A stretch of 64,000 bases of DNA from Candidatus Liberimonas magnetica (GTDB taxonomy: Bacteria; Elusimicrobiota; Endomicrobiia; Endomicrobiales; JAFGIL01), in assembly GCA_020523885.1 (NCBI GenBank), contig JAJAPY010000011.1, positions 34,036 to 98,035 on the forward strand, written 5' to 3'. Each line of letters begins with the position of its first letter. The stretch's first letter is position 1. Shown here piece by piece: positions 3,363-57,656 of this stretch. A program made the translations under genes and the position numbers. The notes under the pieces were generated by a model that made no database searches, was not told the origin of the DNA, and worked only from the letters and a program-made list of their open reading frames with translations.

Positions 3363-3457
3363 AGGTATAAGGGGTAAGTGATAAGGGCTAAGGGAAACCG
3401 AAATCTTTGAATTTGCTTATTTTGTTACTTACAACTTACACCTTACCCCTTATCCCT
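3363..3457. repeat. Heptad-arm inverted repeat, amt-glnA gap
   Basis: Left arm 3363-3394 reads as 7-nt units such as AGGTATA, AGGGGTA, AGTGATA, AGGGCTA. Right arm 3425-3457 reads TTACTTA, CAACTTA, CACCTTA, CCCCTTA and is the approximate reverse complement. About 30 bp lie between the arms. It precedes the glnA promoter and may also act as a hairpin terminator for amt. Confidence 0.8.
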
Positions 3458-3469
3458 GATTTAAAATAG

Positions 3470-3498
3470 TTGACATTCAAAAGGTTTTTAAATATAAT
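3470..3498 (+). promoter_or_regulatory. Consensus sigma70-type promoter for glnA
   Basis: TTGACA (3470-3475), 17 bp spacer, TATAAT (3493-3498): a perfect match to consensus. Start of transcription is expected near 3505, giving a leader of about 120 nt before glnA. Confidence 0.85.
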
Positions 3499-3525
3499 CT
3501 TGTGTCAATGCATATCAGTAATCAC

Positions 3526-3563
3526 AGGACAACGACGTCCTTCTGCCGATTATAAAATGTATT
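3526..3563 (+). promoter_or_regulatory. glnA leader hairpin (A1/G4 hexaloop) and conserved 13-mer
   Basis: AGGAC (3526-3530) and GTCCT (3537-3541) enclose loop AACGAC, again A at position 1 and G at position 4, as in the amt leader. A 13-nt block TATAAAATGTATT (3551-3563) is identical to 1958-1970 in the amt leader. ANTAR proteins bind pairs of such hexaloop hairpins and prevent termination upstream of nitrogen genes; only one hairpin is clear here and I see no U-tract terminator after it. A DNA operator palindrome is the alternative. Confidence 0.4.
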
Positions 3564-3626
3564 GCAGATGTTTCAGATAAAAATATGCCCTAACTTGATT
3601 TCAAGATCAAATCGGAGGAAACAGCA

Positions 3627-5729
3627 ATGAAAACCAAGGTTAATGAAGGGAAAATTCAGACTATAGCTGACATTTATGGAGAAAACGTGTTCGGGCTCAA
3701 GACCATGAGCAAGTATCTTTCAAAAAAAACATACGATTCCCTGCGCGCTACTATAAAAGAAGGCCGGTCTCTTGACCCGCAGATAGCAGACGAAGTCGCG
3801 GAGGCGATGAAGAAATGGGCGCTTTCAAAAGGAGCAACACACTTTACCCACTGGTTCCAGCCTTTGACCGGCGGTACTGCAGAAAAACACGATTCTTTCA
3901 TAGACCCGGACGGGGAAGGCGGAGTAACACTAAAATTTAAAGGCAAAGAGCTTATACAGGGAGAACCGGATGCATCGAGTTTCCCTTCAGGCGGCATTCG
4001 TGCGACTTTTGAAGCAAGAGGCTATACCGCCTGGGACCCGACAAGCCCGGCTTTCATAAAAGAAGGCGAGGATTATTCCACACTTTGCATACCGACAGCG
4101 TTCTATTCATATACAGGGGAGGCCCTGGATAAAAAGACGCCTCTTCTGCGCTCCCTTCAGGCTTTGTCGAAACAAGTCTGCAGGATGGCGGAGCTGTTTG
4201 GGATAGATGCAAAGAACAAGAAAGCCTATGCGACTCTCGGGCCTGAACAGGAATATTTCCTGATAGATAAAGCTTTTTATGATTCAAGGATAGACCTGTT
4301 GCAGACAGGCAGGACGCTTTTTGGCAGAAAACCTGCGAAGCACCAGCAGCTGGAAGACCATTATTTCGGAGCCATCAAACAAAGGATCATGGCTTTTATG
4401 GAAGACCTGGACCGCGAACTCTGGAAGCTGGGCATCCCTTCTAAAACCAGGCATAACGAAGTTTGTCCTGCCCAGTTTGAAATGGCCCCTGTGTTCGAAG
4501 AATTAAACCTTGCTGTAGACCATAACATGATGGTCATGGAAGTCTTACGGCAGGTAGCGGACAGGCACGGGCTTGTCTGCCTCTTGCACGAGAAACCTTT
4601 TGCAGGAGTAAACGGTTCAGGCAAACATAACAACTGGTCTGTGGCAGGCCCTGACGGCAAGAACTGGCTTACACCCGGCGATAATCCAAGGGAAAACGCA
4701 AAATTCTTAACAGTAATATGCGCCTTGATGAAAGCGATAGATACTCACGCAGGCCTTTTGCGCGCCGCAGTAGCATCCGCAGGGAACGACCACAGGCTGG
4801 GAGCTAACGAAGCACCGCCTGCGATACTTTCCATTTTTTTAGGAGACCAGCTTACTGAAATAATAGAACATATAGAAAAAGGAAAAACAGGCGGGGAAGC
4901 AAAAGATAAAGAGTTCCTGGAGTTAGGAGTATCGTCACTCCCTAAACTTGCCAAAGATGTTACAGACAGGAACAGGACGTCCCCTTTTGCTTTTACAGGC
5001 AACAAGTTCGAGTTCCGGGCAGTGGGCTCAAACCAGAGCTGCTCGACGGCAAATATCGTTTTAAATACGATAGTGGCGGAAGCTCTCGATGAGATATGCA
5101 CGCAGCTTGAGTCCGATATAAAAGCTAAAAAGGACTTTAACGTATCATTGCAAAAGATATTGCAGTCTCTAGTCAAAAAACATAAGAGAATAATATTTAA
5201 CGGCGACAACTATACCGAAGAATGGCACAAGGAAGCGGAAAAAAGAGGGCTTCCTAATTTAAAGAACACGCCGGAATCGTTAAAAGAGATAATCAAGGAA
5301 TCTTCTCTGGCGATTTTTGAAAAGCACAAAGTGCTTACAAGAAGGGAAACGCATTCCCGCTACGAGATTTATAAAGAGCAGTATGAAAAAATAGTCAATA
5401 TAGAAGCTCTTGTAGCTCTTGATATGGCCAAGACGCTTATAATCCCGGCGGTGTACAGGTACCAGAAAGAGCTCTCTAAAACGGTCATCAACAGTGAAAA
5501 GTGCAGCTGCCCGGCCTCTAACCTTAAAGAACTGCTCGGACAGATAGCTAAACTTGCTGAAGATACGCTGTCGGACATAAAAGAACTCGAAGGGTCATTA
5601 GCCGGCGAACCGAAAGAGAAGCTTGAAGCGATGAATAAACTCCGCTTGAGCGTTGACCAGCTTGAAGGCCTTGTGCCAAAAGAGTTCTGGCCTCTGGCTT
5701 CCTACACGTCAATGATGTTTGTGATGTAA
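3627..5729 (+). CDS. glnA: Glutamine synthetase type III
   Basis: Makes glutamine from glutamate, ammonia and ATP. The 700-residue length and sequence fit the GSIII (GlnN) class rather than the approximately 450-residue GSI. Visible motifs: LGPEQEYFLID (metal-binding Glu), NGSGKHNNWS, and GSNQSCSTANIVLNT in the C-terminal half. The ATG has a good Shine-Dalgarno (CGGAGG at 3613). It is expressed from its own consensus promoter and sits between amt and the GOGAT genes, so it forms the ammonia-assimilation core of this cluster. Confidence 0.96.
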   Translation: MKTKVNEGKIQTIADIYGENVFGLKTMSKYLSKKTYDSLRATIKEGRSLDPQIADEVAEAMKKWALSKGATHFTHWFQPLTGGTAEKHDSFIDPDGEGGVTLKFKGKELIQGEPDASSFPSGGIRATFEARGYTAWDPTSPAFIKEGEDYSTLCIPTAFYSYTGEALDKKTPLLRSLQALSKQVCRMAELFGIDAKNKKAYATLGPEQEYFLIDKAFYDSRIDLLQTGRTLFGRKPAKHQQLEDHYFGAIKQRIMAFMEDLDRELWKLGIPSKTRHNEVCPAQFEMAPVFEELNLAVDHNMMVMEVLRQVADRHGLVCLLHEKPFAGVNGSGKHNNWSVAGPDGKNWLTPGDNPRENAKFLTVICALMKAIDTHAGLLRAAVASAGNDHRLGANEAPPAILSIFLGDQLTEIIEHIEKGKTGGEAKDKEFLELGVSSLPKLAKDVTDRNRTSPFAFTGNKFEFRAVGSNQSCSTANIVLNTIVAEALDEICTQLESDIKAKKDFNVSLQKILQSLVKKHKRIIFNGDNYTEEWHKEAEKRGLPNLKNTPESLKEIIKESSLAIFEKHKVLTRRETHSRYEIYKEQYEKIVNIEALVALDMAKTLIIPAVYRYQKELSKTVINSEKCSCPASNLKELLGQIAKLAEDTLSDIKELEGSLAGEPKEKLEAMNKLRLSVDQLEGLVPKEFWPLASYTSMMFVM

Positions 5730-5734
5730 GAAAA

Positions 5735-56806: not shown

Positions 56807-56807
56807 T

Positions 56808-56860
56808 GAAACCCATCCGGCAGGAGCCGAAGGATGGGTTTCATCCCGCAATGGCGGGAT
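56808..56860. terminator. Palindromic hairpins between convergent genes
   Basis: GAAACCCATCC (56808-56818) pairs with GGATGGGTTTC (56832-56842) over a loop with a small GGC/GCC hairpin; then TCCCGC-AATG-GCGGGA (56844-56859). They lie between the + strand SGNH gene and the - strand SurA-like gene and could terminate both, though T-runs are missing. Confidence 0.5.
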
Positions 56861-56869
56861 TGACTCTGC

Positions 56870-56905
56870 TTAGTACTTACAACTTACTGCTTATAACTGT
56901 CTTTA
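56870..56905. repeat. Single heptad-repeat arm at the 3' end of the SurA-like gene
   Basis: Units AGTACTT, ACAACTT, ACTGCTT, ATAACTG. No second arm identified. Reaches the stop codon of the minus-strand gene. Confidence 0.6.
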
Positions 56906-57613
56906 CGATTGGCCTTTTTCTATCTCGTTTAAATGCACTTTTATCTTGACTGAAATATTCAACTGTTTGAACCATTCATTAAAGACCATCGCAACTTTTT
57001 CCTGCCTTAAGTTTTTTATAAATTCCTGCCTTTGTGCCTCAAACTTGGACATGTCCCCGCGGTTAGCTCTCATATATTCAAGGCGGATCTCGGGTTCCGT
57101 CAACCTGACGCTCGAAGCGATAAGGTACCTTAATTTAAATACAGCTATTTGCCTTTTTCTTGATTCTTCAAACTTTTGCGGAGTTGTACGGAGTATCTGA
57201 TTCAATACGTTGTAATAGGCGAACCTGTCAAACTGCCCGTTTTTTTGAAAACCGGGATAGCTGTTAATATCCGCGGCGATCTCGCCGTCCGAAACCTTTA
57301 TGCCGTATTTAAGGGACTCCTGATAGAAAACCTCTTCCTGTATCAAGTCCTGCACAACTTCCTGCTTTTTGGTTTTCAGGATGTCATCGGTTACTTCCGT
57401 GTTTTTTTTGCGCATGTTTTCCACTACTCTGTTATACAAGTTGTAATAGGTCGTGTAGGGGATCTGGACGCCGTTTACTTCAGCGACTGCATCGCTTGCT
57501 GTTTTTCTTCCAAAAAAATAACTTCCAAAACCTACAAAAGCACCTGAAAGAAATCCCAGTATGGTTATCGCGAATATGGTAGTCCTATGTTTACGCAAAA
57601 AATTCATTATCAT
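56903..57613 (-). CDS. SurA-N/PpiD-like periplasmic chaperone fragment without PPIase domain
   Basis: 236 residues, the only minus-strand gene of size here. One N-terminal membrane anchor (FAITILGFLSGAFVGFGSYFFG), then AVAEVNGVQIPYTTYYNLYNRV and LIQEEVFYQESLKYGIKVSDGEIAADI, the SurA N-terminal chaperone domain as in PpiD. The parvulin domain expected after residue 240 is absent and the protein ends naturally. Shine-Dalgarno AAGGAG lies upstream. Probably a membrane-tethered chaperone for exported proteins. Confidence 0.82.
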   Translation of the reverse strand: MIMNFLRKHRTTIFAITILGFLSGAFVGFGSYFFGRKTASDAVAEVNGVQIPYTTYYNLYNRVVENMRKKNTEVTDDILKTKKQEVVQDLIQEEVFYQESLKYGIKVSDGEIAADINSYPGFQKNGQFDRFAYYNVLNQILRTTPQKFEESRKRQIAVFKLRYLIASSVRLTEPEIRLEYMRANRGDMSKFEAQRQEFIKNLRQEKVAMVFNEWFKQLNISVKIKVHLNEIEKGQS

Positions 57614-57633
57614 TGGTATATATCTCCTTGAAT

Positions 57634-57656
57634 ATCAGACTACAGACTACAGCCTG
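57634..57656. repeat. Short heptad-repeat arm upstream of the SurA-like gene
   Basis: CAGACTA, CAGACTA, CAGCCTG: a short arm of the CAGACTA family with no partner arm. The rest of the divergent gap (57657-57810) shows nothing clear. Confidence 0.6.

What the first reader, a model, noticed from the sequence alone, without database searches (positions are those of the whole stretch)
3363..57656. A family of heptad-repeat inverted elements fills at least 15 intergenic gaps
Gaps at 3363, 5735, 8446, 13283, 22397, 23881, 26441, 31944, 32641, 33022, 34317, 35366, 53926, 56870 and 57634 all contain degenerate tandem units with a period of 7 nt. In at least 12 of these, two arms are reverse complements. 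Unit sequence differs between loci (AGTCTGT, TGAGTCA, TCTACCT, CATTTTG, CTAAACC, GGGTCAA types) yet the period and the arm-spacer-arm plan are constant. Heptanucleotide STRRs are known in cyanobacteria, but as uniform direct repeats, not as arm pairs of varying sequence. The constant period with changing sequence suggests a copying mechanism that counts bases, or an RNA/protein that reads one helical phase.
Basis: seen in the sequence. Interest (0 to 1): 0.92.

Follow-up and report, generated by a model that had tools for sequence, protein, structure and literature searches.

The report
Heptad arms of S23p intergenic elements
Most of the 7-base repeats between these bacterial genes have the same two-armed, gene-facing layout that flanks genes for S23p, the protein of ribosomal-RNA intervening sequences, so they are likely shrunken copies of one widespread parasitic element, which its protein would recognise by repeat spacing rather than by sequence.

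Summary
Lag 7 is the only strong short period in the window (18 segments; lag 14 gives 8; every other lag 0-3; shuffle 0). All 15 named gaps carry it, and 12 have two inverted arms.

The arrays are element ends, not free-standing satellites. The array at 35366 is the 5' arm of an element holding an intact S23p gene (35411-35767, PF05635); the gap at 8446 keeps the last 40 positions of an S23p between its arms. Of 122 S23p genes examined in Elusimicrobiota and other phyla, 99 have period-7 or period-8 arrays in their flanks, as do 16 of 16 examined on plasmids, one of them inside a 23S rRNA gene.

The two arms share one period, mirror each other unit by unit, put the purine-rich arm first and lie in sense with neighbouring genes. 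Period (7 or 8) follows the S23p lineage even where arm sequence does not.

Best reading: one S23p element class, with rRNA intervening sequences as one habitat, whose gene-less copies fill operon gaps. How it moves is unknown; no reverse transcriptase was found in this genome.

The parts
3363..3457 (+). two-armed heptad element without gene (TAAGGGN type)
5730..5823 (+). two-armed heptad element without gene (AGTCTGN type)
8452..8726 (+). two-armed heptad element (AGTCTGN type) with S23p remnant inside
8529..8666 (+). C-terminal S23p remnant (profile positions 78-117) between the arms
13275..13392 (+). two-armed heptad element without gene (CATTTTG type)
22402..22490 (+). two-armed heptad element without gene (AGTCTGN type)
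23881..23939 (+). two-armed element without gene (GGGTCAA type); weaker lag 7, strong lag 14
26442..26471 (+). single heptad array directly before tRNA-Ala (26475-26549)
31948..32024 (+). two-armed heptad element without gene (CTACCNT type)
32638..32703 (+). two-armed heptad element without gene (GAGTCAT type)
33015..33103 (+). two-armed heptad element without gene (GAGTCAT type)
34314..34375 (+). two-armed heptad element without gene (GAGTTNT type)
35353..35391 (+). 5' heptad arm of the S23p-bearing element
35411..35767 (+). intact S23p gene, 118 aa (PF05635 124.5 bits, TIGR02436 116.6 bits, PDB 2gsc)
35774..35820 (+). 3' arm of the S23p-bearing element
53927..54067 (+). long two-armed heptad element without gene (CTAAACC type), 67-nt arms
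56866..56893 (.). single weak heptad array (CTTAYNA type)
57628..57655 (.). single weak heptad array (CAGACTA type)

Best explanation
The arrays are the arms of an S23p (23S rRNA intervening-sequence type) element: one copy in the window still carries an intact S23p gene, one carries a remnant of it, and the rest are likely gene-less deletion copies; S23p is predicted to recognise the arms by their 7- or 8-nt spacing, and the transcribed arm hairpin is likely cut by RNase III, which would make the insert harmless in operon gaps, tRNA spacers and rRNA loops. Shown: arms of period 7 or 8 flank most S23p genes examined; both arms of one element share one period and mirror each other unit by unit; the purine-rich arm comes first; elements lie in sense with the genes around them; the same operon gap is filled in some relatives and empty in others; period follows the S23p lineage. 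Inferred: that S23p itself binds the arms, that the stem is cut by RNase III (measured only for rRNA intervening sequences), that gene-less copies arise by deletion and are spread with help of S23p supplied in trans, and that arm matching is kept up by copying one arm from the other. Not known: the enzyme or process that inserts new copies.
For: Window S23p between inverted arms; S23p remnant between arms at 8529-8648. 122 usable S23p genes: lag-7 array in either flank 69, lag-8 33, either 99; lags 4-6 and 9-13 at most 7 each; own-flank inverted score above the 99% level of cross-locus pairs in 74. In an earlier subset of 57, inverted score over 15 in 36 against 2 of 52 control ORFs. 16 of 16 plasmid S23p loci have arrays of period 7 or 8; one lies within 23S rRNA between model positions 1207 and 1225 of 2925 with inverted heptad arms. 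Same period in both arms 77 of 81; mirrored unit order 24.8 against 20.0 with units shuffled, 62 of 73. Purine-rich arm first: 79 against 8 for S23p elements, 30 of 32 for own-genome elements in co-directional gaps, against 17:22 for hairpins in array-free gaps. Sense orientation: upstream gene 46 of 47, downstream 35 of 38; tRNAs within 200 nt in 9 of 122, all 14 tRNAs in sense, 0.28 expected. Genomes with S23p have 0.188 lag-7 arrays per kb at the por locus against 0.021 without (26 and 21 genomes, p = 0.011), no difference at other lags tested. Period on the S23p tree: 15 changes against 23.3 mean, minimum 17 of 300 shuffles. Coxiella rRNA intervening sequence: 28-bp terminal stem, tandem heptamers of strain-variable number, RNase III excision (PMC4990558, passages).
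Against: 23 of 122 S23p genes have no period-7/8 array by the threshold used (15 of them no strong inverted arms either). No excess of G-U over A-C mismatches in the arms (157 to 134 in S23p elements, p = 0.2; 28 to 43 in own-genome elements, p = 0.1), so no sign of selection for RNA pairing. Own S23p arms match only 33 of 89 gene-less arrays; two of five own S23p match none, and some foreign S23p match as many. Several window families have no intact S23p partner found in the genome. Two relatives carry S23p but have no element in the por gaps (L031, L049). No reverse transcriptase found, so the parallel with Avd does not explain mobility. Binding and cleavage are untested. The period-lineage link weakens as only very dissimilar arms are compared (0.68 against 0.54, p = 0.013), and one pair of S23p 79% identical differs in period.
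Confidence: 0.7

Rival explanations
1. Ordinary heptanucleotide slippage: 7-nt tandem repeats expand by polymerase slippage wherever DNA is non-coding, as proposed for long simple sequence repeats, and the inverted arms and S23p are incidental.
For: Heptanucleotides are the commonest long 5-11 nt repeats in many prokaryotes and a polymerase contact length was proposed (introduction of PMC4679880 citing Mrazek 2007). Three of 15 window gaps have one arm only.
Against: Two inverted arms at 12 of 15 gaps; arm pairs agree in period (7-7 or 8-8) in 73 of 81 with no 7-8 mixtures among the commonest classes; arrays flank S23p genes and not control ORFs; period tracks a protein.
Confidence: 0.08
2. 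Host-made intercistronic hairpins: selection for a stem between genes (mRNA stability, decoupling or attenuation) builds the arms, and S23p genes merely settled in such gaps.
For: Elements sit between co-directional genes and often end at the Shine-Dalgarno sequence; in the ribosomal protein operon 14 of 16 gaps scanned have arrays.
Against: Relatives lack them in the same gaps; no G-U excess; hairpins in array-free gaps of the same genome show no purine-first bias (17:22); S23p genes in CRISPR and conjugation operons of cyanobacterial plasmids have the same arms.
Confidence: 0.1
3. REP-like repeats moved by a Y1 (RAYT/IS200-type) transposase, which acts on hairpins in single-stranded DNA.
For: Eight Y1_Tnp genes in the genome; hairpin shape.
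Against: No lag-7 or lag-8 array in the four Y1 loci fetched of eight; arm sequence is not conserved between families, whereas Y1 enzymes read a fixed hairpin and tetranucleotide (recalled).
Confidence: 0.05
4. Retro-element: S23p, a relative of the Avd protein of diversity-generating retroelements, works with a reverse transcriptase supplied in trans to copy the transcribed hairpin into new sites.
For: S23p matches bAvd and Avd models below their cut-offs; sense-only placement in transcribed regions is what RNA targeting would give.
Against: No RVT_1 match in this genome, 97.8% complete.
Confidence: 0.07

Closest known systems
23S rRNA intervening sequences (IVS) with S23p, e.g. Coxiella burnetii IVS (PMC4990558)
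   Same: S23p gene between terminal inverted repeats that form a stem; tandem heptamers in the arm, with copy number differing between strains; sense with the host transcript. The Azospirillum lipoferum plasmid copy (L344) is inside 23S rRNA and has inverted heptad arms.
   Different: Window elements lie between protein genes or beside a tRNA, not in rRNA; most have no gene; arm families are many. RNase III cutting is not shown for them.
Heptanucleotide repeats: TAACTGA of Beggiatoaceae (PMC4679880) and cyanobacterial STRRs (recalled)
   Same: 7-nt tandem units in intergenic regions, often just before a start codon.
   Different: Described as direct repeats of one sequence (169 direct sets and one indirect); a text search of PMC4679880 for S23, four helix and intervening found none. 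Here: inverted arm pairs, many sequences, S23p.
MITEs (gene-less derivatives of a mobile element)
   Same: Many short copies share ends with a few gene-bearing copies; one internal-deletion intermediate is present (8446).
   Different: S23p is not a transposase and has no known nuclease; target-site duplications were not tested; only 33 of 89 arrays match an own S23p arm.
REP/BIME repeats with RAYT
   Same: Intergenic hairpins after stop codons.
   Different: No fixed hairpin sequence and no arrays at the Y1 genes examined.
Avd of diversity-generating retroelements
   Same: Related four-helix-bundle protein (Avd and bAvd models match below cut-off).
   Different: No reverse transcriptase in the genome.

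Membership tests
rRNA intervening sequence (IVS) with S23p | S23p gene | tested here: met
   Intact at 35411-35767 (PF05635 124.5 bits against cut-off 33.8); remnant at 8529-8648; absent from the other window elements.
rRNA intervening sequence (IVS) with S23p | terminal inverted repeats around the gene | tested here: met
   35353-35391 with 35774-35820, score 14; 36 of 57 S23p genes score over 15 against 2 of 52 control ORFs.
rRNA intervening sequence (IVS) with S23p | located within an rRNA gene | tested here: not met
   No rRNA in the window or in 40 S23p loci scanned; met only by L344. So the window elements are S23p elements, not IVSs in the strict sense.
rRNA intervening sequence (IVS) with S23p | excision from the transcript by RNase III | not testable with these tools
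   Known for Coxiella (PMC4990558); only predicted here.
Heptanucleotide STRR / long simple sequence repeat | tandem 7-nt units | tested here: met
Heptanucleotide STRR / long simple sequence repeat | direct repeats without an inverted partner | tested here: not met
   12 of 15 gaps have inverted arms.
MITE-type non-autonomous element | shares ends with a gene-bearing copy in the same genome | tested here: inconclusive
   33 of 89 gene-less arrays match an own S23p arm; own S23p match more arrays than foreign ones (6.6 against 1.67 on average, p = 0.03), but some foreign ones match as many.
MITE-type non-autonomous element | target-site duplication | not tested
   No same-genus relative was found, so clean insertion borders could not be read.
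REP/RAYT | repeats flank the Y1 transposase gene | tested here: not met
   4 of 8 Y1 loci examined, none with arrays.
Diversity-generating retroelement | reverse transcriptase | tested here: not met
   RVT_1 absent at E <= 0.001 from this genome.

The most novel reading that the evidence does not exclude
S23p is a ruler protein: its pentamer would read a hairpin by a fixed step of 7 or 8 nt, one step per subunit and whatever the letters, so arm sequence drifts freely while the step is kept. rRNA intervening sequences, the heptanucleotide repeats of cyanobacteria and the heptad hairpins between genes of uncultured bacteria are then one superfamily of sense-inserting parasitic elements that lives in RNA which can be cut without harm.
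Probability: 0.35. Interest if true: 0.93.

Novelty: new variant of a known kind. Interest (0 to 1): 0.84.

Why it matters
The origin and spread of rRNA intervening sequences and the role of S23p have stayed open since their discovery (discussion passages of PMC4990558), and bacterial heptanucleotide repeats have had no agreed cause. If these are one element class, both questions become testable in ordinary laboratory cyanobacteria whose plasmids carry S23p with heptad arms. It would also be a rare case of a nucleic-acid element whose conserved feature is a spacing and not a sequence, and it bears on how operons of essential genes tolerate inserts: in this genome's S10/spc ribosomal protein region 14 of 16 scanned gaps carry such arrays.

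Tried and rejected
Wobble test for RNA selection (G-U against A-C mismatches): no difference in two sets. A general terminal motif AACGRCA...TGYCGTT, seen by eye in termite-gut relatives: 5' in 12 and 3' in 7 of 122, against 2 and 4 in the wrong orientation; a lineage trait at most. A fixed dinucleotide step (AG in 64 of 81 unit consensuses, 52.4 expected): mild only. Arm-sequence code read by S23p: arms resemble each other only above about 60% protein identity, so no deep code. One heptad per pentamer subunit: arrays have a median of 4.7 units at period 7 and 4.4 at period 8, which does not separate a unit count from a constant length. Whole-genome count of AGTCTG arrays by pattern: 137 and 125 matches against 93 and 109 for the reversed control at 3 mismatches, too loose to use. 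Reverse transcriptase in trans and Y1 transposase: no support.

Selection and limits: the 145 S23p loci were 65 returned by the tool as best matches and 80 that I took from the match lists, mainly by E-value and without looking at repeats; 141 distinct S23p, 19 dropped for short flanks, missing N-terminus or very long ORFs. The lists were capped or partial. 16 of 29 plasmid records with a match were fetched; two of them (L339, L340) are near-identical. At the threshold, period-6 arrays also show in 4 of the 16 plasmid loci, each of which also has period 7. The por-gap comparison is between genomes of the same order or further away, three of them of one genus. Shuffles were mononucleotide. Gene calls in scripts were simple ORF calls.

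Papers: PMC4679880, part 1 of 9 and passages; PMC4990558, part 1 of 6 and passages; all others listings only. Ten library searches showed no paper that links S23p to heptad arms outside the Coxiella observation; the library is open-access only.
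Full report
What was checked. The window lies in a 3.39-Mb genome of 29 contigs (G000) that falls with Elusimicrobiota, class Endomicrobia or near it, by the relatives of its pyruvate:ferredoxin-oxidoreductase-like gene at 33107 (the gene name is recalled). No same-genus genome is held. Twelve of fifteen gaps have two inverted arms, and arms match within loci far better than between.

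What the arrays belong to. The ORF at 35411-35767 is S23p, the 23S rRNA intervening-sequence protein, 'four helix bundle protein' (PF05635 124.5 bits, TIGR02436 116.6 bits, nearest solved structure 2gsc). Inside the gap at 8446 a profile built from the S23p set finds the C-terminal 40 positions of another S23p (28.0 bits, E = 2e-6). The genome has six S23p matches and none was found in 14 control genomes; 45 of 149 Elusimicrobiota genomes have at least one, as do 26 of 47 genomes reached through loci of several phyla.

The association is general. Of 122 S23p genes with usable flanks, 69 have a lag-7 array in a flank, 33 a lag-8 array, 99 either; lags 4-6 and 9-13 reach at most 7 each, and 74 have inverted flanks above the 99% level of cross-locus pairs. 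In the earlier subset of 57, 36 score above 15 for inverted flanks against 2 of 52 control ORFs, and 6 of 57 for same-strand flanks. On plasmids, 16 of 16 S23p loci examined (14 cyanobacterial, one Azospirillum, one Gemmatirosa) carry arrays of period 7 or 8, with inverted flanks above the cross-locus 95% level in 8 of 16. The Azospirillum lipoferum copy is inside a 23S rRNA gene, between model positions 1207 and 1225, and has period-7 inverted arms. The Coxiella intervening sequence was already known to have tandem heptamers of strain-variable number and a 28-bp terminal stem (PMC4990558).

Anatomy. Of 88 S23p elements with strong arms, the 5' arm is purine-rich in 79 and poor in 8; own-genome elements in co-directional gaps show the same in 30 of 32 and the window's in 12 of 12, while hairpins in array-free gaps split 17:22. 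Both arms have the same best period in 77 of 81. Shuffling the order of units in one arm lowers the match from 24.8 to 20.0 on average, 62 of 73 elements, so the arms mirror each other unit by unit. S23p genes are in sense with the upstream gene in 46 of 47 and the downstream gene in 35 of 38; 9 of 122 lie within 200 nt of tRNAs, five of them with a tRNA on each side, all 14 tRNAs in sense, where 0.28 were expected. A G-U excess, the mark of selection on RNA pairing, is absent.

Period follows protein. 81 S23p with a clear period of 7 or 8 need 15 changes of period on their tree against 23.3 on average and 17 at least in 300 shuffles. The nearest S23p with dissimilar arms (overlap under 0.2) has the same period in 0.75 against 0.54 expected (p = 0.0005), falling to 0.68 (p = 0.013) at overlap under 0.1. 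Arm sequence itself is shared only above about 60% protein identity. So the spacing outlives the letters.

Gain, loss and gene-less copies. In the por operon the gap before the alpha gene is 93 nt in the window, 93 in G001 (L156), 110 in L085, 139 in L055, 161 in L059 and 142 in L045, all with arrays of different units, but 16, 29, 24 and 29 nt in L032-L035, whose genomes have no S23p match; L031 (11 nt) and L049 (39 nt) are empty though their genomes have S23p. Within one genus, L049 is empty, L045 has a heptad element and L042 one that reads, by eye, as period 8. Genomes with S23p have more lag-7 arrays at this locus (0.188 against 0.021 per kb, p = 0.011), with no difference at lags 5, 6, 8, 9 and 10. 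In 464 kb of the own genome 43 two-armed and 28 single arrays were called; 33 of 89 gene-less arrays match an own S23p arm. In the ribosomal protein region of contig C21 (L3, L4, L2, S3, L16, L14, L5, S8, L6, SecY) 14 of 16 scanned gaps have arrays, and those before L3, L2, S3 and L14 end in the same AGTCTGGAGTTAA just ahead of ATG, so that the arm supplies the likely ribosome-binding site.

Interpretation. I read these as one class of S23p element with many gene-less copies, for which rRNA loops, tRNA spacers and operon gaps are places where cutting the RNA does no harm. S23p as reader of the step, RNase III as cutter and arm-to-arm copying as the keeper of symmetry are inferences. The insertion process is open: no reverse transcriptase, and no arrays at four of eight Y1 transposase genes.

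Noticed in passing
window 35997-36757: A group I intron (35997-36229) followed by two c-di-GMP-I riboswitches (36478-36564, 36671-36757) ahead of a 2390-aa ORF at 36731-43903: a possible c-di-GMP-controlled ribozyme arrangement, just behind the S23p element.
   Followed up: no
L131 (G000:C21:1-20000): S10/spc ribosomal protein region with heptad arrays in 14 of 16 scanned gaps; four genes share the arm end AGTCTGGAGTTAA as likely ribosome-binding site.
   Followed up: partly
L335, L336, L338: On cyanobacterial plasmids S23p genes sit inside CRISPR-cas operons (between cas10 and the Cmr3-family gene, and twice between cas6 and cas4).
   Followed up: no
L183, L189, L193, L222, L311: S23p elements lie exactly between two tRNA genes, always in sense.
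   Followed up: partly
window 53927-54067: The longest element has units CTAAACC, close to the plant telomere repeat CCCTAAA (recalled), in 67-nt arms.
   Followed up: no
L045 and L060, por gaps: A second, unrelated hairpin (ATCCCCGA...TCGGGGATCC type) occupies some of the same por gaps in Endomicrobium relatives.
   Followed up: no
   Followed up: no
window 8685-8732: The ORF list opens the 1529-aa ORF at a TTG inside the 3' arm (8685); the true start is probably further on, near 8733 (sequence).
   Followed up: no
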